This document shows positions 18,808-34,640 of a stretch of DNA of 64,000 nt, piece after piece. The notes under the pieces were generated by a model that worked only from the letters and a program-made list of their open reading frames with translations, was not told the DNA's origin and did not search any database. Source of the DNA: Magnolia sinica (Eukaryota; Streptophyta; Magnoliopsida; Magnoliales; Magnoliaceae); assembly GCF_029962835.1 (NCBI RefSeq), contig NC_080588.1, positions 44,561,001-44,625,000 of the forward strand, given 5' to 3'. The translations under genes were made by a program, and so were the position numbers. Every line of letters starts with the position of its first letter. Position 1 is the first letter of the stretch.

Positions 18808-20701
18808 CCTAAAGGAATGGTGAAGAGAGGAATAGTTTATAATCTCGGGGCATTGGAGAATAATTAGTACTAAAATTCATAGTGACATTTGCCACCGGCG
18901 AATAATTGAATTCTCTATAATCTAGCGGCTCCTCTTTCGTGCCCATTGGAGCATCCAATCTACCAATAGGAGTTACTTCGTCAAGATGGTTTTCTTCAGT
19001 AACGCCAACATCTTCAGCATCATTATCATCATAATCATCATCATCAATATTAACATCTACATCCTCTCATGCTTTTTCATCCTCCGTAGAGCTGCTTTCT
19101 CCATTAGAGTTGCTACTTGCAATTGATTCTTCATATTCACTTTCTTCAAAAGAATCCTCTCGAACAAGTTCTTCAATCATAACCTATTTTCCCTTACTTG
19201 ATGAACTAGCCCCGCTTGCATGTGTTCTTAACTCCGTAAGGGTTGGGGAAGTACTTTGTCTGCCTTGTCCAGCAAAAAGAGAAGGAATCAGAATCTGAGA
19301 GCAGGTGGCAGGTGATGAAAAGCTCTACCTGGCAGATTCCATAATGGGAGAAACAATCGAAGGTTCCAGCACAGTTCTAATTTTCTCAATTAGGGCTTCT
19401 CTAGCTGGCATATAATGTGCAGCCATTTACGTCTGTGGACTTCGTTCATTACCCTCCCTTTGAGGACTAGGAGTTGTAGCAACTGCTTATTCTTCAAGTC
19501 TTCTCTCATCCAAATGAGTACCATATGTTATCTAACCATTGAGAGTGTCCATGGGCTTTCTTCAATGAATAGGTTCAACTAGAGAAATTTTCAAAAAAGT
19601 CTGACCAGCTGTAGGGGCGTGATCTTTTTCCATTGTATAACTGATACCCTACTTGAGCTTATAGTTCTTGAGTTTAAGTGGAGCAACCAAACTGGGTAGT
19701 TCACTGAATGATATTGGCAAACTAAGTAATACTTCTGCGCCCAGTAGCGCATCCAACAATATGAGGTCTGAATTGAATGGTTGTACCCAAGCAAGATGAA
19801 ATGGGACAATTTATGCACTATCAGATGTTGTTTATAGATGAAAGCCTAGTAATAAGGTCCAACATCAAAGCTCCTCATTACTCATGTAATAGCATCGCAA
19901 ATCTCCAGAATGGTTTGATCATAGCTGAATTGACGCGCGAACCTACTAGGGTAGTATGGCTTGCGCTAAAATTCGCTACCCTCTTAGGGATTGTTGGAAC
20001 TGATACACATAAAAAAGTAGCATTCATTTGGCAATGACGACTCATCATCCACTACATCTCTGTCTTTATGGATGTTAGAGAGAGGAAATTGGAAGAATAG
20101 GATGGATTCCGTCCTCTCGATCTTTTCCACAACCTAGTATATTTCTTCTTGATCACTTTCCTCTATTAGTAATGCCATAGTGGGAGGTGATCTAGGTTGA
20201 TGTATGCTTTGTCTATTTCATCATACGTCCATGGGAAGTATACTCTAAGCCATCCAACAAAGTTATGCCAAGGAGCATAGGCCGATGATGCTCCAATTTA
20301 AGGGCTTTTGTAATGAGTAACTACATTGTCAAAGGCACGATATAAGGAACAAAGGAGATGATGAGCCAATGAGTACTTTCTTCCTTCATCCATCACCCTA
20401 GCAACTATGAATAAGGTTGGCCTATTAACATCAGCCCACTTGGAACTTGGTAGAACTACCGAGCCAAGCTAGTAGACTAAGAACGTGGCTAACTCACAAG
20501 ATTTGTTAAATTTGGGTCAGCCACATATATTTTGCCTGACATCATCAAGTTCTTTATTATTACTTCTAGCGAAACTAGACAATAAAAGATAAGGTTAGTT
20601 TTGTATGAATCATTGAAACAATATGCAAAAATACGAGGAAATTAAGAGAAGGACATGAATGTACTGAATATTTCTAGTGAAGTGGGTAAGCCAAGTGAAG
20701 T
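18808..20701 (-). pseudogene. Plant mobile domain (PMD) protein, 3' half, degraded
   Basis: The minus strand encodes recognisable parts of the aminotransferase-like plant mobile domain: SKWADVNRPTLF near 20450, and PWHNFVGWLRVYFPW near 20275-20225. A strongly acidic tail follows (Asp/Glu runs around 19075-19000). PMD proteins exist both as host genes (MAIN/MAIL type) and as passengers of plant transposons. Stops and frameshifts interrupt the frame. The 5' half lies at 33457-34640, beyond the inserted copia sequences. The Athila-like LTR abuts its 3' side. Confidence 0.65.
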
Positions 20702-21557
20702 TGAAAAGGCTGAGCTAAGAGTCCTAGAGGGGGGGTGAATAGGAATATGCCAAATTAAAAATTAAATGTGGAAATAAGCAATTGTAAATAAAGATAGAAC
20801 TTAAACAATCTCACAATGCAGAAATGAATAACAACCTCAAACATACAAGTATTGAGAGGTTGATACAGATGTTGTTCTAAGGACAACCTTACACCAAAAA
20901 CCAATGGCTTATGGTAGGACAACCTGATTCCTAGAACGGTCTGTGTATCAAAATCTCAAACTAATACAGAGGAATAAAGAATAAAATAGCAAAGAAAATA
21001 ACTAAGCTATTACAGCATTCCCACACTTGCATAAAAAGATTACAACATTCTCCATAAATGCTTAAAAAGAAAATTACAACATCCACATAATGTCACAATC
21101 AATCATTCACCACAAGGCCAGAAATTATAATGGTTCGCTTGTGCGTAACCAACTATTTAGAAAAATAACCACACAACTACTCCACTCCTAATATCCTCAC
21201 AAATAGGTTTTTCAATGTTTACCTAAAACCTTCACAATTGTGTCTTTCAAGTGAGCTTACACAATTCAAAAACCCCATACTCTGAGTTTTCTTGATCACC
21301 TCAAACAAACCAAAAGAAAGAGATTTTTCTTGGCACAATCTCAAAGAAACCAAAAGAATAGATTTACAGAAATGTAAAATACTTGTCTGGATATTCTCCT
21401 TTGATGTAGCCCGGTAGAACTAATTCGGAGTAGAAGTTCAATGTAGATGTTTAATGTCCACACTCACTTATGAAAAGGTTCTAGGTTCTAAATGATTTTT
21501 AAATTAAATCACCTTGGGCTAGCTTGATTTGATTTTGATTCCAAAAAATGAGAAAAC
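20702..21557 (-). repeat. Solo copia LTR, part 1 (minus strand)
   Basis: The plus strand starts TGAAAAGGCTGAGC, the reverse complement of the end of the SIRE-type LTR (GGCCTTTTCA), and continues with recognisable LTR sequence including AGGGGGGGTGAATAGG. It is interrupted at 21557 by the complete copia element and resumes at 32369. The target duplicate GAAGT lies at 20697-20701 and 33457-33461. No interior is present, so this is a solo LTR of a related but diverged family. Confidence 0.85.
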
Positions 21558-21723
21558 TGTAAGTGCTATAGTTTCTATCCCTCTTTGTTGTCAAATTTGT
21601 AGTGCCAAAATCACTATTATACTCTGTTATATATAACTTGCATAAGTGAAGCTCTCTCAAGGATCAACATACATAAACAAGCAAAGCTCTCAAGTACAAG
21701 ACTCAAGATCTTGATTGAAAAAG

Positions 21724-21813
21724 CTGAACTCAAGACTCAAGTTGAAAGTCAAGCTGAACTCAAGACTCAAGTTGAAAGTCAAGCTGAACTCAAGACTCAA
21801 GCTGAAACTCAAG
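21724..21813 (+). repeat. Three 30-bp tandem repeats in 5' LTR
   Basis: Units begin GCTGAACTCAAGACTCAA at about 21725, 21755 and 21785; the third has small changes. The same triplet is at about 30541-30630 in the 3' LTR. The in-frame translation (repeats of AELKTQVESQ) is a by-product of a 30-bp unit, because no coding role is expected in the U3 region. Confidence 0.85.
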
Positions 21814-21994
21814 CCACTTTCAAGATTGAGCTACTTCAAGGTTTAATCTACATCAAGACTTCAAAGCTCATTCTTCATGGTCTCTTGTTTCAATGTCCAT
21901 ACTTCATGATTGAGGTTTGTTTGACCATAGGTTGACCGTAGAAGTAGGTCATTTCGGATACATAAGCCGAATGTTATTTTACATGTGATTGGTC

Positions 21995-22340
21995 TATTCT
22001 TCGACTAGTCCTAGGGCTTCTTTGACCAGTCCTAGACTTGCTTCGACCAGTCTAAGAAATTCCTCGACCAGTCGTAAGTTTGTTACAAATTCCAAATAAA
22101 ATTTGTTAGCCTTCGACTAGTCCTGGAATCTGTTCGACCAGTCGTAGGAACAGTGTTTCTGCATCTTCGACCGGTCGTAGAATCTACGACTCGAAGTCTA
22201 GCGAAGATATTCAGGACCTACGACCAGTCGTAGGAGAGCTACGACCAGTCGTAGAACGGTCAAAGCAAATCCCGCCGGATTTTTCAAATATCTGTTAGAG
22301 CTTCGACTAGTCGAAGAGCACTCTAGACCAGTCGAAGACC
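21995..22340 (+). promoter_or_regulatory. CGAC-N2-GTCG palindrome cluster upstream of TATA (5' LTR)
   Basis: About ten sites share the core CGAC-N2-GTCG or one-base variants. The best are CCTACGACCAGTCGTAGG (22217-22234), CTACGACCAGTCGTAG (22239-22254) and CTTCGACTAGTCGAAG (22301-22316). The outer arm bases change in a compensated way (CTA/TAG versus CTT/AAG). The cluster ends about 20 bp before the TATA box. Possible roles are binding sites for a dimeric factor or hairpins; this is inference. Confidence 0.75.
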
Positions 22341-22352
22341 CGATCTTCTCAC

Positions 22353-22362
22353 CTATAAATAG
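22353..22362 (+). promoter_or_regulatory. TATA box of SIRE-type LTR
   Basis: CTATAAATAG follows the palindrome cluster and recurs in the 3' LTR at 31171-31180. It is the probable core promoter for the genomic transcript, with R starting some 25-35 bp downstream. Confidence 0.75.
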
Positions 22363-23548
22363 TGCACGAATCTCAGAAGAAATCATCGATTTAATTAAAG
22401 TATTCAAGCCAATCTTCGTCGAACTTCTGAGAGATAATTCTGTGCTCCATCTAAGCTAAGTGTGCTTATTTAATATCTTCTTTCCTTAGCTTTATTTTAA
22501 TTGATTTTGTTTCTTATATTCCAATCTGATTTGATAAAGAGGAATTATTATTCCCTTTCTTTGGAATCAAAATCAATTAAGGCAAGCCCTATTTGGTTTA
22601 ATTTAAAATCTATTAGAACTAGAACCATTGTAATCAAGTACTGGACATTGAACTTGGACATTCAATCATCTACTTTGATTTGGTTCTACCGGGCTGCTAC
22701 AACGAAGAAGATATTCAGGTATTTTACATATTGTAAATTCCTTTCTATTATTTTGGTTTCTTTCAAGATTTGCCAAAAAAATCTTGTTATATTGGTTATC
22801 TGAGGAAAGCCAGGAAAACTCAGAAGTGGGGTTTTTTTAATTGTGTAAGCCCACATACAAAGACACAATTGTAAGGGTTTTGGGTGAACCTGGGAAAACC
22901 TATCTTTAGTGAACGCTAATATCCCCTGTGTGAGGATATTAGGAGTGGAGTAGCTTTTTGTGTGGCTGTTGGATAACAGTTGGTGAACACACAGGCGAAC
23001 CACTATAATCCCTTGTGTTGTGGTTGATTATTTTATTCTTCTATTTTTTTATTCCTTTTGTGGGATGTATGTATAGTGGTGAATGTTGTAATTATTTCAA
23101 GCTTTGTGAGAATGTTGTAATAGCTTAGAATTCACTTTCTGCTATTCCTTTATAAGCTTGATTTTCAATTTCATTTGAAAGTTGTTCCAGCAAGGTTGCC
23201 CTGCCATTTTTATGGTGTATGGCTGTCCCTAGAACAATACATTTTTAATTACAAGTTATTTCAATTCAGTTTGTATTTCTTTTTATATTCCTCTTCGATT
23301 TGAGACTTGATACAAAGACCTTTCTAGAAATAAGGTTGTCCTACCATAAACTCTGTTTTTGGTGTAAGGTTGTCCTTAGAACAACGTTTGTATCAACCTC
23401 TCAAGATCTAAATTTTGAGGTTGTTTTACTTTCCTGCATTGTTATTTAATTTGGCTATCATTTTCTTTATTATTCCGCTGTTATAAGTTTTTATTTGGCA
23501 TTGTCCTATTCACCCCCCCTCTAGGACATATAGCTTGGCCTTTTCAAG

Positions 23549-23615: not shown

Positions 23616-24449
23616 ATGTCAAATTTTGATAGCCTTTCATCACTAGGCCTCCACCCTTTGATGGCTCCAACTATGCTTATTGGAAAGCCGTAATGAGGAT
23701 CTTCCTCAAATCAATGGATGAAAATGTATAGCAAGCCACAGACTGAATGGAATCCTCCTATCATGGAAGTTACTGGGGTTGACGGTTCAAAATCTATGAA
23801 AACCACACCATATTACCAATGGACCACCCTTCAGAAAAGTGAGAGTAGTGCAAATGCTAAAGCACTAAATGCAATTACTTGCGCACTATCACCGGATGAG
23901 TTCAAAAGAATCATTTCTTGTGATACTGCAAAGCAAGCTTGGGATACATTAGAAATGACACACGAGGGTACTACAATTGTCAAAAAATCTAAAGTCCAAC
24001 TCCTCACAACCAGATTTGAAGAAATTCATATGGAGGAAAATGAAATGTTTATGGACTTTTACACTAGATTAAATGACATTGTAAACTCAATGTGGGGTCT
24101 TGGCGATAAGATCCCAGAAAGTAAAGTGTGTGCAAAAATATTACGCTCACTTCCTGAATGGTTCAATTCTAAAGTAACCGCGATCCAGGAACTTCGTGAT
24201 ACGGATAATATGAGGGTAGAAGAACTAGTTGGTTCACTACAAACCTACGAGTTAAACTTTAAAGCTCCTAAAGGTAAATCTATCGCACTAAAATCTTCTA
24301 AATGTAATTCAGAAGAAAATTCTGATTCAGAAGATGATATGGCTCTTTTAGCTAAAAATTTTATAAGATTTTCAAAAGCAAGAAAAGGGTTGATTTTCAA
24401 AAATCAAATGACAAAAAGAAGTTTAGACCCAAATCTCGAAAATCCTTGA
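23616..24449 (+). pseudogene. Copia gag (broken)
   Basis: The ATG at 23616 opens a short frame. A frameshift near 23640 leads into the conserved start (PPPFDGSNYAYWKAVM), which ends at an in-frame TAG (23729-23731) where a tryptophan is usual. A second shift leads into the open stretch 23718-24449, which holds the copia UBN2-type gag domain (FKRIISCDTAKQAWDTLE; MDFYTRLNDIVNSMWGLG). The zinc knuckle follows in another frame at 24446. The product would have been the capsid protein of the particle. Confidence 0.8.
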
Positions 24450-27109
24450 AAGATAGTCAATGTTACAACTGTCTAGAATATGGGCACTTAGCAAATAGAT
24501 GTCCTAAAAGGGACAAACCCAAGAAGAAGGGTATGTTGGCTACATGGGATGAATCATCTGATTCTGAAGGTTCTTCTGAATCAGAAGATTCTGAAACTGA
24601 GTCGGGCAATGAGGTTAAAGCTCTTATGACTCTAGCCAAATTCACATTTTCAGATAATGACTCTACAAGTGAAGAAAATCTGAATAGTGAATGTGAAAAT
24701 GAAGATGATCTTCAAGATGCTTACAATGCCCTATATAAGGAAAGTTGTAAAATTGCTGTCAAACTTAAACTTCAAAAAGAAAAGTTTTCCAAACTCAAAA
24801 ATTGTTTTGATTCACTTGTCTTAGAAAAATCACAAATTTCAGATAATTTTGAAAAATCAAAATGTGATTTGGAATTCAAAAACTCACTAATTGTTGATTT
24901 AAAATCTGAAATTGAGAATCTTAAAACAGAAGTATCTTCTCTTCTAAGTTTAAAGGACACATGGAAATATGCCCAAGGTGATCCAAAGTTAGAGAAACTT
25001 TTATCCGGATCTAGAAAATGTGACGATCGATCTGGGTTGGGCTATGATAAAAATTTATCTCCTAAACACATGTATACTCCTATGTTTGTTAAAGGAGAGT
25101 CCTCAAACTCAAAAGGGAAAAATACTTATCAAGATTTTTCTAAAAATTCAAAAACTTTTCAAAAACCTAGAAACAGCCATGTCAACTTTAATCAGAATCG
25201 AAATCCACTAGCTGAAAAGATAGTTGATTTACTCAAGGAGCTATTAAAATCTAACTCTATAGGTCATTCCTACAAGTATACACAAAAGAAGACCAACTAT
25301 GTTCCTAAACCCAAAACAGTTATGAAATGGGTTCCTAAAGTCACCTGCTTGGTTGCTCACACTGCTTTCAAAGCAACAAGTCATTCAAAGTGGTACCTAG
25401 ATAGTGGATGCTCCAGGCATATGACAGGTGACAAAGCTTTATTCACCGATCTGAAAGAGATGACTGATGGTTCAGTCACATTTGGTGATGGTAGCAACTG
25501 CAAGATAATAGGCCAAGGTACGGTTCAACTTTTTAATCTTCCGGTGTTTAAAAATGTTTTATACGTTGAAGGCCTAAAGCACAACTTGCTTAGTATATCA
25601 CAAATATGTGATAATAACCATAATGTTCGGTTTTCTAATCAAAGCTGTGAGATATTAAATAATAAGGGTTCTGTAATATTAATTGGACGTAGAACGTCTA
25701 AAAATTGCTATATTATTAGTGAATCCAGCTCATCTAATCAAACATGTTACATGATCCATACAGACGAGACTGACTTATGGCACAAACGTCTTGGACATGT
25801 ACATTATCGAAATTTATATCGATTGAGCAAACGAGAACTTGTAAGAGGTTTACCCAAACTTCAGAAATTAGATAAAATATGTGGTGAGTGCAAGATAGGC
25901 AAACAAACAAAGAACTCACACAAAAAGGTGAATTCAAATACCACATCAAGACCACTCAAACTTCTCCATATGGACCTGATAGGACCTACCAGAATGGAAA
26001 GTCGTGGTGGTAAAAAGTACATCTTGGTAATAGTCGATGACTTTACCAGATTCACTTGGGTAGTCTTCTTAAGGGATAAATCTGAAACCCTTGAAGAAGT
26101 AAGAAAAGTTCTCAAAAGGATTCAAATTGAAAAATCTTCTCAAATCAGTAAAATTCGTAGTGATCATGGATCTGAATTTGAGAATAGCAATTTTGAGAAG
26201 TTCTGTACCGGCCAAGGAATATTACATGAATTCTCTGCTCCCAAAACTCCACAACAAAATGGAATTGTAGAAAGGAAGAATAGGGTGCTTCAAGAAATGG
26301 CTAATGTTATGTTGAATAGCATGAAGCTCTCTAAAAATCTTTGGGCTGAAGCAGTCAACACAGCTTGCTATATTATTAACCGAGTCTACACTAGAAAAGA
26401 TAATAATAAAACGGCTTACGAATTGTGGTTTAATAAAAAGCCTACTGTTAAATACTTTCGAGTTTTTGGCAGCAAGTGCTATATTTTACGTGATCGTGAA
26501 AATTTGGGAAAGTTCGATACGAAGAGTGATGAAGGTATTTTTCTAGGATACTCTTTAAACAGTCGAGCTTATAGGGTCCTGAACAAAAGGACTGGTGTGA
26601 TTCAAGAATCCATCAATGTTGTCATTGATGATCATTTAAACACACCAACTTCTAATTCAGATAATGATGAAATACTAATCATTGATAAACCTGATACTTC
26701 ATCGAATCAAACTGATTCTGAGTTGAGGACTGTTAAAGATCATCCAACTACACAAATTCTTGGAAACCCTCTCACCGGTGTTCGCACCCGTAGACAACTT
26801 GAGGATATATGTAATTATGTATGTTTTACATCCCAAATTGAACCATCAAACGTAAAAGAAGCTCTTGCTGATGAGAACTGGATTGTTGCGATGCAAGATG
26901 AACTCAACCAATTCATAAGAAATGATGTTTGGTATCTCGTACCAAGACCTAAAGATAAACACATCATTGGAACAAAATGGATTTTCAAAAATAAGTCTGA
27001 TGAATGTGGAAATATAATTAGAAACAAGGCTAGACTGGTGGTACAAGGTTATACTCAAATTGAAGGGATTGATTTCGATGAAACCTTTGCACCGGTAGGC
27101 ACGTCTTGA
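24446..27109 (+). CDS. Copia Gag-Pol open stretch: zinc knuckle, protease, integrase, start of RT
   Basis: 887 codons without a stop. Order: CCHC knuckle ([14 protein letters not shown], residues about 6-19); an acidic, coiled linker (about 30-170); aspartic protease with [13 protein letters not shown] (about 316-328); GAG-pre-integrase with HKRLGH and [11 protein letters not shown]; integrase core with the DDE residues in [15 protein letters not shown] and NGIVERKNR; and the N-terminal RT segment beginning [13 protein letters not shown]. The frame is lost at 27109, just after the conserved FAPV of reverse transcriptase. It starts inside gag, so it could only be expressed as part of a longer polyprotein, and upstream breaks prevent that. 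Assignment to the SIRE lineage rests on the knuckle context and long linker. Confidence 0.88.
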
Positions 27110-28337
27110 ATCTATCAGACTATTTATATCCATTGCATGTTTTAAAAAGATAAAGATCTATCAGATGGATGTGAAAAGTGCTTTTCTAAATGGCGATTTA
27201 CATGAAGAAGTCTATGTTGAACAACCAATGGGATTTGAAGATCCCAAAAATACTAATCATGTATATCGGCTTAAAAAGGCACTTTATGGATTAAAACAAG
27301 CACCTAGGGCATGGTATGAGAAACTAACAAAATTTCTTTTAACTCATAATTTTCAAATGGGATCTGTTGATAAACTCCGTTTGTTAAAAAACATAATGAT
27401 CATATCTTAATGGTACGATTTATGTTGATGATATCATTTATGGATCAACTTGTACTAACTTGACTACGGAGTTGCAGATTTGATGAAATCACAGTTTGAA
27501 ATGAGCATGGTTGGGGAATTGACTTATTTCCTTGGATTGCAAGTAAAGCAACAACCTAAAGGAATATTCATTTCTCAATCTAAGTATGCCTTGAATTTAA
27601 TCAAGAGATTTGGATTTGAGAATGGCAAGAATTTCGATACTCCTATGAGTACTACCCTGAAACTATCAAAAGACTCTAATGGTAAAAATGTTGATTCAAA
27701 ACTTTATCGGAGTATGATTGGTAGTTTGTTATATTTAACTGCTAGTAGACCTGATATTTCTCTAAGTGTTGGTATTTGCGCAAGATATCAATCGATCCAA
27801 AAGAATCTCACTTGATTCTTTGTCAAGCGAATTATTAGATATGTCGCAAATAGTAAATCTAGGTCTCTGGTATCCTCATGAAACCAATGTCCAATTAGTT
27901 GGGTACTGCTGACTGGCTGGTAATCTAGATGATAGAAAATCAACCAGTGGTGGTTGTTTTTTATTGGAAATTGTCTAGTTTCCTGGTTTAATAAGAAATA
28001 AAATTCTATATCACTTTCAACAGCTGAAGTATATCGCAGCTGGTAATGCATGTACACACTTGTTTGGATGCAACGAATGCTAAGTGATTATGGAATTAAA
28101 CAGGATTCTATGTTATTACATTGTGAGATAAATATTTCAAAAAATCCTATTCAGCATTCTCGTACTAAGCACATTGACATTAGATTTCATTATATAAGGG
28201 AATTAGTAGAAGAAAAAGTTATATCTCTAGAATATATTCCTACTGAAGATCAACGTGCTGATATTTTCACAAAACGTCTTGATAAAAGCAGGTTCAAAAA
28301 GATGAAATTTGATCTTGGCATGTGCATTTTAAATTGA
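27110..28337 (+). pseudogene. Copia reverse transcriptase / RNase H (frameshifted)
   Basis: The RT resumes in shifted frames. [20 protein letters not shown] and [16 protein letters not shown] lie within 27165-27410. The catalytic YVDDIIYGS lies at about 27421-27447. The fingers/palm continuation with ELTYFLGLQV and YRSMIGSLLYLTASRPDI lies within 27480-27815. RNase H is broken around 27820-28050 and ends in 28050-28337 with SRTKHIDIRFHYIRE and EDQRADIFTK. At least three frame changes prevent a functional enzyme. The last stop (28337) precedes the extra ORF by about 460 bp. Confidence 0.85.
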
Positions 28338-28429: not shown

Positions 28430-28503
28430 TATACGACCAGTCGTGAGTATACACGACCAGTCGTACTACGACCGGTCGTAGATACCCACGACCAGTCGTG
28501 GAG
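28430..28503 (+). promoter_or_regulatory. Internal CGAC-N2-GTCG palindrome cluster before the extra ORF
   Basis: Four palindromes lie within 75 bp, including CTACGACCGGTCGTAG (28466-28481, perfect) and CCACGACCAGTCGTGG (28486-28501). They belong to the same class as those upstream of the LTR TATA box, with a further compensated arm variant (CCA/TGG). They lie between the end of RNase H and the extra ORF start at 28795, where a promoter for a separate mRNA could be. No clear TATA box follows, so that role is inference. Confidence 0.65.
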
Positions 28504-28794
28504 CACGGGTTTCACTTGAAATTGGGGATTTTTTCACTTTCTTCCTCATTTCTTCTTTCTTCTCCTTGGAGCCGAACTTCGACTCGTCGAACCCATCCTT
28601 CAAGTTCTTCAAGGTTAGTGTTCCAATTCCGTTTTTCTTGCATATTTGTGTCAAGATTGCTTCCTTTTCTCTCTTGAAGCTTTCTATCTTGAAAATCATT
28701 GAGATTTGGGGTTTGGGTTGTGAAAAATCTGTTTTGAGCAAACCCTCTTCTCAATCCTTTGCAACTTCTTTTTTCCTTTAATTCCTTGTTGCAA

Positions 28795-29934
28795 ATGGCT
28801 TCTAGAGGAAGAAAAACTACTTCACGTGGTCCTTCTTCTTCCTCCAGATCAACTCCTATCTCTAAACGTCATCTTCTTGTTCCCAATGATGATCCATCAT
28901 TTGTTAGGGACATTAGATCTCGTAAGGTTATCGTTGAACATCCTGTTGATGTCAATCACATTGCTCCATTTGACATCCTTCCTATGCTTGAAGTTGTAGG
29001 TTGGACTAACTTATTGCATTGGGGTGGGCCTGCATACCGGTCCATTGCCCAATCCATGTTTTCATGTATTAGTGCATTTTCACAGGATAATTTAACTTTT
29101 CAAATTTCTACTAGAGAAGGGCCATTTGACGTTGATCGTCATTTAATTTCAGCCCTTATGGAAATTCCTGTGAATGATGAGGGTATTCCAATTCATAATT
29201 TAACTGATAAACCCTCAATGGCTGAAAAACGTATGTTAACTAAAGACTTGTGCAATATGGATGTTCAATGGACTCAAAAAGGGAATGCGCTCCCCGCAAG
29301 GTATTTGTTACCCAAATACAGAATTCTCCACAGAATCTTTGTGTCTAATTTGTATCCTCGTTCGGGTAATAAATCTGACCTGACTTCATTTATGGTTCGT
29401 GTTATCCATGCTATCTCAAATGGTACTCAAATTTGTTTGCCTTCCTTAATCTGTCATTTCATTCTTCAGTTTCGACTCCATCCTGGTCATAGTGACATTC
29501 CATTTGCATACTTTATGACTGTATTGGCTACTCATATGTTAGTCGATATGCCTGTTGATGAAGCACCAATCCATCATCTGATCTTCAACAATACAAATAT
29601 TAATAAGATGAAGTTGGATCTGCTTCCTGAACAAGGTGGTGGTGGTGTTGGTGGTCCTGAAGAAGCTGGTGTTGATATTAATATGGATGACATTTTTGAG
29701 GAACTGGATTCTGACTCAGCTAATGATCCAGATTTTGTACCATCTAATGTTGATGCACGTCTGAGTGCATTAGAAGGTAGAGTTGAGGATATAAATGTTA
29801 AGTTGGAAAACATGTCTGTTGCTCATGATTTGCAATTCAAGTATATGCGCAAATATCTTAGGCGCTTGAACAAAGGCATGCACCAACTTGATCCTTCTAT
29901 TCCTGCTCCATCTTCAAGTTCTAGTTCTGACTAG
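28795..29934 (+). CDS. Extra ORF of SIRE-type element (env-position accessory protein)
   Basis: An intact frame of 379 residues from the ATG at 28795 (MASRGRKTTSRGP). Layout: Ser/Arg/Lys-rich N-terminus (1-40); a globular region (about 45-265) with the motif NLYPRSGNKSDLTSFMVRVI; a Gly-rich then acidic linker (about 275-315, EELDSDSANDPDF); a predicted coiled coil (about 318-355, RLSALEGRVEDINVKLENM); and a Ser-rich end. No signal peptide, convincing membrane segment or glycoprotein feature is visible, so it does not look like an envelope protein. It resembles the domain catalogued as 'putative plant transposon protein' and the ORF at 47646-51978 of the chromovirus. Function unknown. It is the only full-length intact ORF of the element. 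Confidence 0.75.
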   Translation: MASRGRKTTSRGPSSSSRSTPISKRHLLVPNDDPSFVRDIRSRKVIVEHPVDVNHIAPFDILPMLEVVGWTNLLHWGGPAYRSIAQSMFSCISAFSQDNLTFQISTREGPFDVDRHLISALMEIPVNDEGIPIHNLTDKPSMAEKRMLTKDLCNMDVQWTQKGNALPARYLLPKYRILHRIFVSNLYPRSGNKSDLTSFMVRVIHAISNGTQICLPSLICHFILQFRLHPGHSDIPFAYFMTVLATHMLVDMPVDEAPIHHLIFNNTNINKMKLDLLPEQGGGGVGGPEEAGVDINMDDIFEELDSDSANDPDFVPSNVDARLSALEGRVEDINVKLENMSVAHDLQFKYMRKYLRRLNKGMHQLDPSIPAPSSSSSSD

Positions 29935-30124: not shown

Positions 30125-30137
30125 AAAAAGGGGGAGA
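30125..30137 (+). other. Second (internal) polypurine tract
   Basis: AAAAAGGGGGAGAA lies about 240 bp upstream of the LTR and is preceded by TTGTCATATTGTGAC. It is longer and purer than the tract abutting the LTR (30364-30373), and its context (GACAAAAAGGGGGAGA) is what SIRE-type elements normally carry at the LTR edge. Confidence 0.55.
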
Positions 30138-30363: not shown

Positions 30364-30373
30364 AAAGGGAGAG
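30364..30373 (+). other. Polypurine tract next to 3' LTR
   Basis: AAAGGGAGAG, followed by AT and the LTR start TGTAAGTGCT at 30376. It is the expected primer for plus-strand DNA synthesis. Confidence 0.7.
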
Positions 30374-30375
30374 AT

Positions 30376-32368
30376 TGTAAGTGCTATAGTTTCTATCCCT
30401 CTTTGTTGTCAAATTTGTAGTGCCAAAATCACTATTATACTCTGTTATATATAACTTGCATAAGTGAAGCTCTCTCAAGGATCAACATACATAAACAAGC
30501 AAAGCTCTCAAGTACAAGACTCAAAATCTTGATTGAAAAAGCTGAACTCAAGACTCAAGTTGAAAGTCAAGCTGAACTCAAGACTCAAGTTGAAAGTCAA
30601 GCTGAACTCAAGACTCAAGCTGAAACTCAAGCCACTTTCAAGATTGAGCTACTTCAAGGTTTAATCTACATCAAGACTTCAAGGCTCATTCTTCATGGTC
30701 TCTTGTTTCAATGTCCATACTTCATGATTGAGGTTTATTTGACCATAGGTTGACCTTAGAAGTAGGTCATTTCGGATACATAAGCCGAATGTTATTTTAC
30801 ATGTGATTGGTCTGTTCTTCGACTAGTCCTAGGGCTTCTTCGACTAGTCCTAGACTTGCTTCGACCAGTCTAAGAAAATCCTCGACCAGTCGTAAGTTTG
30901 TTACAAATTTCGGATAAAATCTGTTAGCCTTCGACTAGTCCTGGAATCTGTTCGACCAGTCGTAGGAACAGTGTTTCTGCATCTTCGACCAGTCGTAGAA
31001 TCTACGACTCGAAGTCCAGCGAAGATATTCAGGACCTACGACCAGTCGTAGGTGACCTACGACCAGTCGTAGAACGGTCAAAGCAAATCCCGCCGGATTT
31101 TTCAAATATCTGTTAGAGCTTCGACTAGTCGAAGAGCACTCTAGACCAGTCAAAGACCCGATCTTCTCACCTATAAATAGTGCACGAATCTCAGAAGAAA
31201 TCATCGATTTAATTAAAGTATTCAAGCCAATCTTCGTCGAACTTCTGAGAGATAATTCTGTGCTCCATCTAAGCTAAGTGTGCTTATTTAATATCTTCTT
31301 TCCTTAGCTTTATTTTAATTGATTTTGTTTCTTATATTCCAATCTGATTTGATAAAGAGGAATTATTATTCCCTTTCTTTGGAATCAAAATCAATTAAGG
31401 CAAGCCCTATTTGGTTTAATTTAAAATCTATTAGAACTAGAACCATTGTAATCAAGTACTGGACATTGAACTTGGACATTCAATCATCTACTTTGATTTG
31501 GTTCTACCGGGCTGCTACAACGAAGAAGATATTCAGGTATTTTACATATTGTAAATTCCTTTCTATTATTTTGGTTTCTTTCAAGATTTGCCAGAAAAAT
31601 CTTGTTATATTGGTTATCTGAGGAAAGCCAGGAAAACTCAGAAGTGGGGTTTTTTTTTTAATTGTGTAAGCCCACATACAAAGACACAATTGTAAGGGTT
31701 TTGGGTGAACCTGGGAAAACCTATCTTTAGTGAACTCTAATATCCCCTGTGTGAGGATATTAGGAGTGGAGTAGCTTTTTGTGTGGCTGTTGGATAACAG
31801 TTGGTGAACACACAGGCGAACCACTATAATCCCTTGTGTTGTGGTTGATTATTTTATTCTTCTATTTTTTTTATTCCTTTTGTGGGATGTATGTATGGTG
31901 GTGAATGTTGTAATTATTTCAAGCTTTGTGAGAATGTTGTAATAGCTTAGAATTCACTTTCTGTTATTCCTTTATAAGCTTGATTTTCAATTTCATTTGA
32001 AAGTTGTTCCAGCAAGGTTGCCCTGCCATTTTTATGGTGTATGGCTGTCCCTAGAACAATACATTTTTAATTACAAGTTATTTCAATTCAGTTTGTATTT
32101 CTTTTTATATTCCTCTTCGATTTGAGACTTGATACAAAGACCTTTCTAGAAATAAGGTTGTCCTACCATAAACTCTGTTTTTGGTGTAAGGTTGTCCTTA
32201 GAACAACGTTTGTATCAACCTCTCAAGATCTGAATTTTGAGGTTGTTTTACTTTCCTGCATTGTTATTTAATTTGGTTATCATTTTCTTTATTATTCCGC
32301 TGTTATAAGTTTTTATTTGGCATTGTCCTATTCACCCCCCCTCTAGGACATATAGCTTGGCCTTTTCA
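30376..32368 (+). repeat. 3' LTR of the SIRE-type element
   Basis: 1993 bp with the same ends and content as the 5' LTR: tandem 30-bp units near 30541-30630, palindromes near 30815-31160, TATA at 31171-31180. Visible differences from the 5' LTR are mostly single transitions and T-run length changes near 31655 and 31868. Confidence 0.92.
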
Positions 32369-33456
32369 AAAACTTTAATCCCTTCTTCAAATAAGATTGG
32401 AATATAGAATACAAAATCAAATGCAAAAAGCTAATTAAAGAGAATATAAAATGAGCACTAAATAGCTTAAGAATATCACTAACTTATCTCTCAGAGTGGT
32501 GTCTTGATTTTGCTTGAATTCGATGAAAATCTTTAAAAATCATGCTCTATTTATAAGTGCAGAAACTGCTCACTCGACTGGCCCAGAGGTCAACTCGACT
32601 GGTCGAAGGACCAACAAACTTTTAAAAATTCGGGCGCGATAAGATAAGTCGTTCCACGACTGGTCGAATGGCCTGCATGACCGGTCGAGTAGCCTCCACG
32701 ACTAGTCGAGACATGCCCACGACTGGTTGTGTGGGACCCAATTTGGTTGCTAGAATTTGAGTCGAGCCTGCTCGACTGGTCGAGCACTGTTCACTCAACT
32801 GGTTGAGGCAAGAACAAAAAATCTCAAAAAAAAGTAACAAACCTTGGACTGGTCGAGGAATTTCTAAGACTGGTCGAGCCAGTACTAGGACTAGTCGAAC
32901 ATAGGCTAAGACTAGTCGAGAAAATAGTCTATACACTTATGTAGTGACCCAATTAAAGTATGCAATCAATGTAACCTATCCTATGGTCAATCTAGGGTCA
33001 TTCATACCTTATAAGTGATATTTGAACATTGAAAACTTCTTTTTCTTCAGTTGATGTTGATCATGGAATACACAAAGCTTGATAACTTGACGTACTTTGA
33101 ATCTTGAACTTGAAGTACTTTCGAAGCTTGAATTTGAAACATTTTGAAGCTTGAGCTTGAGTTGCATTTCACCTTGAGCTTTGAGTTCCAAAGTAAAGTA
33201 CTTTGTCTTGACATAGATGAAACTTTGAAACCTTGAACTATTGAAGCTTAAAAGAATGAACTATTAGTTGGTGTTGTACTTGAACTTGTATATCTCTTGA
33301 TCTTACATTTGAAGTTCTTGAGGTAAAGACCTTTGTTCTTGTACATGAGTTGCATGATCTTAAATATGTAGATGAGCTACACAAGACACAGATTCTAAGA
33401 GGTTTTGGCACTACAAAATTTGATAATCATAGGAGCTAGAAAACATAGCACTTACA
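32369..33456 (-). repeat. Solo copia LTR, part 2 (minus strand)
   Basis: This is the continuation of 20702-21557. Its plus-strand end AAACATAGCACTTACA is the reverse complement of a TGTAAGTGCT-type LTR start. TSD GAAGT follows at 33457-33461. Total solo LTR length is about 1.94 kb. It contains a minus-strand TATA box near 32547-32556 and its own palindrome cluster. Confidence 0.85.
32570..32930 (-). promoter_or_regulatory. CTCGAC-N2-GTCGAG palindrome cluster in solo copia LTR
   Basis: About ten sites. The clearest is GCTCGACTGGTCGAGC (32770-32785), with seven-base arms. In minus orientation the cluster lies just upstream of the TATA box near 32550. The arm base differs from the younger element (CTC/GAG instead of CTA/TAG or CTT/AAG). 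Spacing between sites is irregular. Confidence 0.7.
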
Positions 33457-34640
33457 GAAGTTGGTTATCTTTCTAATGTCTAGGAACTTCACCATCTTCT
33501 TAAAAAGTTTGATGGTCATTTAGGTGATTTTTGGCTAGTGGCTTGAGGAAGAAAAATATGTGAACTCATCGTTCATTGGCACATTTTCATTAAAGAAGCA
33601 GCCGGTGATGGGAAGACTAGCCATTCTGTACAAGTCCCAAAGCGTGATGTTGATTTCGCCTATGGGAAGATGGAATGAGTTCGTAATGGGGCACCTGTAG
33701 TTCAAAACCCTTTAAATATAGTCACATCATGGAAAAAATAATCTAATGTGACTTAAATAGCGTTGATGAGATCTGTCTTCATAAGGGTGTCTGAATGCTT
33801 TCTGATGATCGCCTTTGCCCGGGCGTTATAGTGTGTGTGCGAAGAAAGGAAACCGTGGCACCAAAGAGATTCTCTATTGCAAAACCTTAGTCTCGAAGAA
33901 GTGCATTGGGAAAAGATTGTGTGGGTTATAGCTAGGCATTAGAAATCTCATTGAGGATATCTTTCTCATCTTCTGTCTTGAACCCCTATCTATTATTGAG
34001 CCTTCCAAGATGTGTAGCTCCTTTATTACTCGATGCGGTGTATGAAGAATCTTGTTGTGGACCATCTTGTCCTTGGGCTCACTATGCAAAATGGATAGAT
34101 GTTAGCAAAGGTTCATAGGGATGATGATCATCTCATCTCTAAATGGGCTATTGAACTTGATCATTTCTTGCGATACTTTGATATATTCCAAGTGTTCTGA
34201 AGACGCTTGTTATTGAACTCCTTGATTTTCTCTTGGCATTGTTGCTCTTTGGTCTTATTTTACTTCTTATGAGAGAAGGATGGAGGTAGACTAGATTCTC
34301 TAGCAGGGGTCTTGTGTTCTGTGCTTTGATGTTGGAAGTAGTCTATAAGCAATCTTCCCATTCAGATTCTTGACCCCTTCTAGGCAGTCTCTCTATTTCC
34401 CCCATAATGATTGCTTGACGGATGGGTTGGAAAGATGATTTATCATATTTGCAAAGTCTACAATTTGTGGAGCTGGTATCTTGAAAAAAGCAAGATTGTT
34501 AGTGGTAGTTTTAGCCCTTTTACCAAGGCGTTCTTCTGCCTAAGGCAACCGAGTACTTGTCTCCTGTTGGGCTTGACTCTTCTGATGAGGAGTGGTTCTG
34601 GAGCGACTCTAATAGTTCTTTTTGTTTTCTCCATTTTCTA
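33457..34640 (-). pseudogene. Plant mobile domain (PMD) protein, 5' half, degraded
   Basis: On the minus strand a start-like MEKTKRTIRVAPEPLL begins near 34635. The PMD hallmark FHLPIGEINITLWDLYRM lies at 33675-33622, followed by LPITG. Stops and frameshifts are frequent in between. The fragment ends at the TSD of the solo LTR and continues at 20701 on the other side of the inserted sequences. It could be a decayed host gene copy or a transposon passenger; no terminal inverted repeats or transposase were seen. Confidence 0.65.

What the first reader, a model, noticed from the sequence alone, without database searches (positions are those of the whole stretch)
22000..22340. Arms of LTR palindromes covary: CTA/TAG, CTT/AAG, CTC/GAG and CCA/TGG around CGAC-N2-GTCG
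In the SIRE-type LTR and the older related solo LTR the core CGAC-N2-GTCG recurs about ten times. The outer bases differ between sites but stay complementary: CCTACGACCAGTCGTAGG (22217), CTTCGACTAGTCGAAG (22301), GCTCGACTGGTCGAGC (32770), CCACGACCAGTCGTGG (28486). Compensated change indicates the symmetry itself matters, as hairpins or as sites for a dimeric DNA-binding protein. It may also act as a signal recognised by an element- or host-encoded factor.
Basis: partly seen in the sequence, partly recalled or inferred. Interest (0 to 1): 0.75.

Follow-up and report, generated by a model that had tools for sequence, protein, structure and literature searches.

The report
Palindromic promoter repeats in plant retrotransposon
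The repeated palindromes are the known type of regulatory repeat that sits upstream of the promoter in Sirevirus-class plant retrotransposons; their two arms do match across subfamilies, but mainly because whole arrays changed together a few times in the past rather than because each palindrome was compensated on its own.

Summary
The palindromes are real: 21 exact CGAC-N2-GTCG in the window against 0.16 expected. They form an array just upstream of the TATA box in the LTRs of a Sirevirus-type (Ty1/copia) element, in the older solo LTR it is nested in, and in its linker upstream of the env-like ORF. This is the palindromic "repeated motif" (RM) architecture of Bousios et al. 2010, with a CGAC...GTCG core instead of their CGG-CCG signature.

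Within the window, arm covariation is not significant (25 sites, p=0.35). In 80 LTRs (948 site observations) it is clear at positions +-6 and +-7 from the dyad (z 11.0, 12.7). But left and right arms of different sites in one LTR are nearly as associated as arms of one site, and the excess comes from a few deep branches. So arms switched array-wide between subfamilies; site-by-site compensation is weak. Predicted RNA folds pair mostly different sites, and shuffling arms among sites costs little. Best reading: multiple binding sites for a dimeric nuclear factor, about half spaced exactly 21 bp, whose preferred flank differs between subfamilies. Binder unidentified. New member of a known kind.

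The parts
21558..23546 (+). 5' LTR of the young Sirevirus-type element; TSD AAAAC at 21553-21557
   Evidence: direct repeat, ends and TSD read
22002..22334 (+). palindrome (RM) array in the 5' LTR: 11 sites with exact inner GAC-N2-GTC, centres CA, TA or CG; spacings 21,21,21,49,21,33,53,21,62,21
22217..22234 (+). CCTACGACCAGTCGTAGG, TA/TA arm type
22301..22316 (+). CTTCGACTAGTCGAAG, TT/AA arm type
22354..22361 (+). TATA box (cTATAAATAg) just downstream of the last palindrome
   Evidence: sequence; same order in the 70 of 80 sampled LTRs that hold an exact TATAAATA
23508..23526 (+). polyC-rich 'integrase signal' near the 3' end of the LTR
   Evidence: motif described in PMC2829016
23547..23560 (+). 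primer-binding site region AGTGGTATCAAAGC
23718..24449 (+). gag ORF (Retrotran_gag_2)
24446..27109 (+). pol ORF (zinc knuckle, pre-integrase, integrase core, start of RVT_2)
27480..27815 (+). further pol ORF piece (end of RVT_2)
28434..28589 (+). linker RM cluster, 5 exact sites, upstream of the accessory ORF; CpG o/e 1.36
   Evidence: same layout in 9 fetched relatives
28486..28501 (+). CCACGACCAGTCGTGG, CA/TG arm type (linker, not LTR)
28798..29934 (+). accessory / env-like ORF; weak PF20167 Transposase_32 (40.4 bits, cut-off 45)
30366..30375 (+). terminal polypurine tract AGGGAGAG followed by AT
30376..32368 (+). 3' LTR of the young element; TSD AAAAC at 32369-32373
30820..31152 (+). palindrome (RM) array in the 3' LTR
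32374..33456 (-). first part (U3 side) of the older solo LTR, read on the minus strand; TSD copy 33457-33461
32576..32918 (-). palindrome array of the solo LTR, with blocks of 21-bp spacing; GCTCGACTGGTCGAGC (CT/AG type) at 32770-32785
20702..21557 (-). second part of the same solo LTR; TSD copy 20697-20701. The young element is inserted between the parts

Best explanation
These are the Sirevirus LTR repeated motifs: an array of about 6-13 short, same-orientation, imperfect palindromes in U3, ending a few tens of bases before the TATA box, plus a second cluster in the linker upstream of the env-like ORF. Most likely each is a cis-regulatory binding site for a dimeric nuclear (host) factor that reads the conserved inner half-site GAC/GTC with its CpG step and, less strictly, the two flanking base pairs at +-6 and +-7. 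Within blocks the sites lie 21 bp apart (two helical turns), which would put the bound dimers on one face of the DNA. Between subfamilies the favoured flank changed (CT/AG, CA/TG, TA/TA, TT/AA) in many half-sites on the same branch, so left and right arms look compensated. Shown here: position, array layout, 21-bp spacing, CpG richness, covariation concentrated at +-6 and +-7 (and +-8), array-wide rather than mainly site-wise association. Inferred: that a protein reads the sites, that it is a dimer, that it acts on transcription.
For: 78 of 80 sampled LTRs from the same genome carry 6-13 sites (up to 1 core mismatch); in the 70 LTRs with an exact TATAAATA the sites lie upstream of it. 325 of 645 spacings of 15-120 bp are exactly 21 bp. 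The inner core is largely conserved while spacer bases vary. CpG observed/expected 1.29 in the array and 1.36 in the linker cluster against 0.21-0.51 in four other parts of the element. Association of half-sites at offset 6: LL 0.092, RR 0.103, LR different site 0.091, LR same site 0.119; offset 7: 0.128, 0.094, 0.113, 0.162; offset 8: 0.099, 0.035, 0.067, 0.041; between -0.007 and 0.021 at offsets 1-5 and 9 (all slots): both orientations of the half-site in many sites follow one subfamily type, and the adjoining spacer base does not go along. On the tree, same-direction co-changes at different sites exceed expectation at offsets 6 (63 against 29.6), 7 (81 against 42.7) and 8 (54 against 35.4), not at 1, 2, 4, 5, 9, 10; offset 3 has only 3 against 0.6. 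Position and palindromy agree with the RMs of PMC2829016, which its authors link to regulation.
Against: No binding, expression or small-RNA data; no factor identified. The centre is strongly polar (CA 557 against TG 10 in LTR sense, of 948), which a perfectly symmetric dimer would not require. Distal sites are stably asymmetric. Only 157 of 948 site observations are perfect palindromes from offset 2 to 7. A small same-site component exists that a purely array-wide model does not need (within one LTR, offset 7 matches 0.690 against 0.623 with right arms permuted among slots). The array-wide signal rests on few deep branches: without branch 73 the different-site excess remains at offset 6 (38 against 25.2, p=0.02) and 8 (47 against 32.5, p=0.019) but not at 7 (31 against 32.1); without four deep branches it is gone at 6 (19 against 19.3) and stays at 8 (46 against 31.9, p=0.02). 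Spacings other than 20-22 bp show little helical phase (48 distinct values, R=0.19 at 10.5 bp). Offset 10 shows some left-left association in the proximal sites (0.102), which homogenisation could also give.
Confidence: 0.55

Rival explanations
1. Neutral repeat turnover: the array descends from one oriented unit by tandem duplication, and units were homogenised or exchanged (unequal exchange, template switching at the shared core), so arms of a unit travel together and look compensated without selection on symmetry.
For: 21-bp register, one orientation of the sites (CA 557: TG 10), and unit-number differences in the proximal block (slots 951 and 972 are empty in the window copy and filled in many relatives). 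In the window LTR pair 12 of 23 differences fall in the array (expected share 17%, p=1.6e-4), fitting exchange or fast mutation there. Association at offset 7 falls with distance between sites (rho -0.33).
Against: Concerted change is concentrated at offsets 6-8, absent at 9 and nearly so at 10, i.e. the spacer part of the unit; association at offset 6 does not fall with distance between sites (rho -0.01, p=0.95); slots are alignable between the young and the old LTR.
Confidence: 0.3
2. RNA structure: the array is kept because U3-containing transcripts fold into hairpins that serve the element (packaging, stability) or feed the host's siRNA production, as proposed for maize Sireviruses.
For: RNA fold of 21995-22345 is far more stable than 100 dinucleotide shuffles (z -7.7) while a U3 control stretch is not (z +0.84); mean z about -6 against single-base shuffles in 20 of the 80 sampled arrays. 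In the seven symmetric slots T-G exceeds C-A at offset 7 on the sense strand (55 against 13). Papers report smRNA hotspots on maize Sirevirus LTR palindromes (passages in PMC5311732 and PMC10760457; the 2016 original not held).
Against: An array of palindromes is expected to fold well whatever its role. Of 2486 predicted pairs in 20 arrays, 3.3% are within a site and 39.5% between sites; swapping right arms among sites changes energy by 1.2 kcal/mol on average (z -0.3). Over all slots there is no G-U excess at offset 7 (122 against 151), and 37 of the 55 in the symmetric slots come from slots 1015 and 1078. The common sense-strand centre CA cannot pair, and the antisense strand folds better in 20 of 20. 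Inter-site pairing could still reward array-wide matching, so this is not excluded.
Confidence: 0.12
3. Direct site-by-site compensatory evolution.
For: Complementarity at offsets 6 and 7 is 0.559 and 0.690 against 0.441 and 0.541 in permutations over all LTRs; a residue survives permutation among ten tree neighbours (z 4.6 and 2.9) and, at offset 7, permutation among slots of one LTR (0.690 against 0.623). Same-site co-changes 7 against 2.9 and 11 against 4.1.
Against: Not significant once branch 73 is left out (p 0.24, 0.13); gone in blocks of two neighbours; different-site arms covary about as much; intermediates with one changed arm (cta-aag) are common.
Confidence: 0.1

Closest known systems
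Sirevirus repeated motifs (RM boxes), Bousios et al. 2010, PMC2829016 (section 9, first part of section 15 and search passages read)
   Same: Many copies of a palindrome in the upstream half of the LTR, before a conserved TATA box; extra copies upstream of the env-like gene; CpG island; motif differs between elements while palindromy stays; the authors already suggest that substitutions in the symmetrical motif may change the binding factor.
   Different: Core here is CGAC-N2-GTCG, not the CGG-CCG signature (stated for all of their 13 elements except Tnd-1). 21-bp register, stable asymmetric distal sites, fixed centre polarity and array-wide arm types by subfamily were not in the passages I read.
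[quoted passage not shown] 2016 Genome Res (not held; known through passages of PMC5311732 and PMC10760457)
   Same: Palindrome cluster in the LTR cis-region that is variable in sequence and folds strongly.
   Different: Maize motif is of the CACCGGAC-N-GTCCGGTG type; small RNA evidence exists there, none here.
Repeated cis-activators of other plant copia elements (Tnt1, Tto1; mostly recalled)
   Same: Tandem boxes in U3 that bind stress-related factors (box I of Tnt1 is mentioned in PMC2829016; the rest recalled).
   Different: Fewer copies and unrelated sequence (recalled, not tested).

Membership tests
Sirevirus (Ty1/copia) retrotransposon | copia-type gag and pol | tested here: met
   Retrotran_gag_2, rve, RVT_2 pieces, zinc knuckle in separate ORFs
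Sirevirus (Ty1/copia) retrotransposon | polyC-rich integrase signal near LTR 3' end | tested here: met
   CACCCCCCCTCTAGG in both LTRs and in the solo LTR
Sirevirus (Ty1/copia) retrotransposon | PPT octamer AGGGGGAG two bases before TG of the 3' LTR, further copies upstream | tested here: met
   Window terminal copy is AGGGAGAG+AT (one change) with AGGGGGAG at 30129; exact AGGGGGAG starts 10 bases before the LTR start in 10 of the 13 fetched related regions that showed an LTR start (15 fetched)
Sirevirus (Ty1/copia) retrotransposon | PBS TATCAGAGC at the 5' LTR junction | tested here: inconclusive
   TATCAAAGC, one difference
Sirevirus (Ty1/copia) retrotransposon | additional env-like ORF after pol (part of the group) | tested here: inconclusive
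   378-aa ORF present; only a sub-cut-off PF20167 match, no usable fold
Sirevirus RM box | at least eight palindromic copies per element, mostly in the upstream half of the LTR, before TATA | tested here: met
   11 sites in the window LTR plus 5 in the linker; in the sample 6-13 per LTR in 78 of 80, with 17 LTRs at 6 or 7
Sirevirus RM box | linker copies upstream of the env-like gene | tested here: met
   28434-28589; clear in 10 of 15 fetched related regions, unclear in one more (L113)
Sirevirus RM box | CpG island over the RM cluster | tested here: met
   CpG o/e 1.29 (LTR array), 1.36 (linker), 1.00 (old array); GC only 0.46-0.49, no formal island caller run
Sirevirus RM box | CGG-CCG core signature | tested here: not met
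   Core is CGAC-N2-GTCG; one of the 13 described RMs (Tnd-1) also lacks the signature, so it is a common, not a necessary, feature
Sirevirus RM box | regulatory activity | not testable with these tools
   no expression or binding data here; PMC2829016 says experimental confirmation is required

The most novel reading that the evidence does not exclude
A retrotransposon family re-tuned its whole promoter array to a new half-site on a few occasions: on single deep branches many half-sites of the array, in both orientations, and some linker sites about 2 kb away, took the same new flank at +-6/+-7. That would be array-wide specificity switching, either to follow a host factor or paralogue, or to escape silencing that targets the old palindromes.
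Probability: 0.3. Interest if true: 0.62.

Novelty: new member of a known kind. Interest (0 to 1): 0.35.

Why it matters
It shows that apparent arm covariation in LTR palindromes can be array-wide subfamily turnover rather than per-site compensation, and gives a simple control (left arm of one site against right arm of another) that separates the two. With 16,489 anchor matches in one genome, the family is large enough to test whether retrotransposon promoters change transcription-factor preference in steps, and whether silencing drives it.

Tried and rejected
(1) Chance: rejected. (2) Site-wise compensation as the main cause: rejected on the different-site control; a small same-site component remains. 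(3) Sense-RNA hairpins inside single sites as the selected unit: not favoured. (4) Whole 21-bp unit homogenisation: disfavoured, since offset 9 and mostly 10 are not concerted, but kept as rival. (5) Helical phasing beyond the 21-bp blocks: little seen. (6) Accessory protein as binder: single-sequence structure model useless. (7) Related elements in viral contigs: pol query found nothing; a three-site pattern gave 19 stretches that I did not examine further and do not use. (8) Literature search for the exact cores: 68 papers hold at least one of four strings; none of the 20 listed titles concerns retrotransposons. (9) Linker against own LTR (read by eye, regions with the linker set plus the window): five elements with at least one TA/TA (cta-tag) proximal LTR site (window, L109, L118, L119, L120) have aca or ata as left arm of linker site 2; five without (L108, L110, L111, L112, L114) have act. 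Linker site 1 follows less cleanly, sites 3 and 5 do not, and this is probably one clade split, so it is only suggestive. (10) I did not get a second independent LTR sample or genome-wide arm counts, because the genome search stopped answering. Many offsets and tests were examined; p-values are not corrected.

Full report
What is there. The window holds a young copia-type element (5' LTR 21558-23546, 3' LTR 30376-32368, target-site duplication AAAAC) with gag and pol ORFs, an accessory/env-like ORF (28798-29934) and non-coding marks of a Sirevirus: polyC-rich signal near the LTR end, polypurine tract followed by AT/TG, TATA box. It is inserted in an older related solo LTR that lies on the minus strand (33456-32374 and 21557-20702, duplication GAAGT in plus-strand letters). 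The two LTRs of the young element differ at 23 of 1989 aligned bases (1.2%), and 12 of the 23 lie in the 348-bp palindrome array (p=1.6e-4).

The palindromes. CGAC-N2-GTCG occurs 21 times exactly, 0.16 expected. In LTR orientation the centre is CA or TA in most sites; the CTC/GAG example at 32770 reads TG only because the solo LTR is on the other strand. Sites come in blocks of 21-bp spacing with other gaps between blocks. A cluster of five lies in the linker before the accessory ORF (20, 15, 20, 91 bp apart).

Is the covariation in the window? Not significantly. With the 25 exact inner-core sites of 5' LTR, linker and solo LTR (3' LTR left out as a near copy), arms at offsets 5-9 are complementary in 60 of 125 cells against 57.9 when right arms are permuted, p=0.35; with one core mismatch allowed, 31 sites, 72 against 63.9, p=0.065, the best single offset being 6 with p=0.026.

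Sampling the family. The window's genome (1.84 Gb) has 16,489 matches to a 25-base LTR anchor outside the array with up to 3 mismatches. The tool lists only the first 100, all on contig C1 and all exact; 85 remained after dropping same-strand neighbours within 16 kb (likely LTR pairs), and I fetched the first 80 of these. 78 of 80 have 6-13 sites (two have none: L043, L105), upstream of TATA in the 70 that hold an exact TATAAATA. 325 of 645 spacings between 15 and 120 bp are 21. An alignment of these 78 plus three window LTRs gave 13 slots; with the 3' LTR of the window dropped, 80 LTRs and 948 site observations remain.

Covariation in the sample. Permuting right arms within each slot over all LTRs: offset 6 complementary in 0.559 against 0.441 (z 11.0), offset 7 in 0.690 against 0.541 (z 12.7), offset 8 z 4.3, offsets 5 and 9 z 2.5 and 2.2. 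Permuting only among about ten tree neighbours leaves z 4.6 at offset 6 and 2.9 at 7, and under 1 at 5, 8, 9; in pairs of neighbours none of the five offsets is significant. The table of LTRs in tree order, read by eye, shows why: subfamilies carry different arm types in many symmetric slots, CT/AG, CA/TG, TA/TA and TT/AA, with half-changed forms such as cta-aag between them.

The deciding control. If each palindrome were compensated on its own, left and right arm of one site should covary clearly more than left arm of one site and right arm of another. The difference is small: offset 6 same site 0.119, different site 0.091, left-left 0.092, right-right 0.103; offset 7 0.162, 0.113, 0.128, 0.094; in the seven proximal symmetric slots same site 0.144 against different site 0.139, and 0.313 against 0.286. 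Within one LTR, permuting right arms among slots gives 0.690 observed against 0.623 at offset 7 (none of 4000 permutations reached it), 0.559 against 0.542 at 6 (p=0.06), and at offsets 5, 8, 9, 10 observed values below the permuted ones: a small same-site component at 7. The association is close to 0 at offsets 1-5 and 9 and small at 10 (0.022 left-left over all slots; 0.102 in the proximal ones), so the spacer mostly does not go along. Parsimony on a tree from 361 columns outside the array gives the same: same-direction co-changes at different sites exceed expectation at 6 and 7 about 2-fold and at 8 about 1.5-fold (offset 3: 3 against 0.6), same-site ones at 6 and 7 by 2.4- and 2.7-fold but not at 8 (2 against 4.5). 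Most of it sits on a few deep branches; one (branch 73, 42 leaves) changes C to T at offset 7 in 11 half-sites of six slots. Without it the same-site excess is not significant (p 0.24 and 0.13), the different-site excess stays at 6 and 8 and vanishes at 7; without four deep branches it also vanishes at 6. So the statement is: a few array-wide switches, many independent one-arm changes.

RNA or DNA? The array folds well as RNA (z -7.7 against +0.84 for a control stretch), but in 20 of the 80 arrays the predicted pairs are more often between sites (39.5%) than within a site (3.3%), and dealing right arms out anew among sites changes the energy by 1.2 kcal/mol on average. There is no general wobble excess on the sense strand (122 T-G, 151 C-A at offset 7, all slots); in the symmetric slots there is (55 against 13), 37 of the 55 from two slots. 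The non-pairing CA centre prevails (557 of 948). I therefore favour reading as double-stranded DNA by a protein; inter-site RNA pairing is not excluded, since it too would reward a common arm type. The explanations overlap, so their odds are not meant to add up to one.

Comparison with what is known. Bousios et al. 2010 (PMC2829016; section 9, the first part of section 15 and search passages read) describe this architecture: palindromic repeated motifs, at least eight per element, mostly in the upper half of Sirevirus LTRs before a conserved TATA box, CpG islands, and extra copies upstream of env; [quoted passage not shown] Maize work (passages of PMC5311732 and PMC10760457; the 2016 original is not held) reports small-RNA hotspots and high variability there. 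The element here differs in its core (CGAC-N2-GTCG). No listed title or abstract start in four searches dealt with array-wide arm switching; I saw listings only for these, apart from the papers named, and the library lacks most subscription journals.

Limits. One contig, one anchor, one genome of unnamed species; slot orthology rests on one alignment; parsimony states are simple; many tests without correction; no binding or expression data.

Noticed in passing
22023-22028 and same slot in relatives: Loss of the CpG in a half-site turns TTCGACC into TTTGACC, which contains a W-box-like TTGACC (motif recalled, not tested); decayed sites could gain a different reader.
   Followed up: no
21998-22345 against 30816-31163: 12 of the 23 LTR-LTR differences of the young element lie in the array, some clustered in spacers (22092-22103, 22235-22238), as if by exchange with another copy rather than point mutation.
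   Followed up: partly
L108-L112, L114, L118-L120, linker sites: The linker palindromes keep their own spacing (20, 15, 20 and, where a fifth site is found, 88-90 bp) in 9 related copies (five sites in 7, four in 2), and the second one differs in arm type in step with the LTR array between two groups.
   Followed up: partly
45667, 50490, 58955: A repeated stretch holding CGAGCTGTCG occurs three times; the first lies about 1.1 kb before a different LTR/PBS-like junction (TTACAAGTTGGTATCAGAGC at about 46760), apparently another LTR element.
   Followed up: no
28798-29934: Accessory ORF has a basic N-terminus, a weak plant-transposon domain match and a C-terminal stretch that looks like a coiled coil by eye.
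   Followed up: partly
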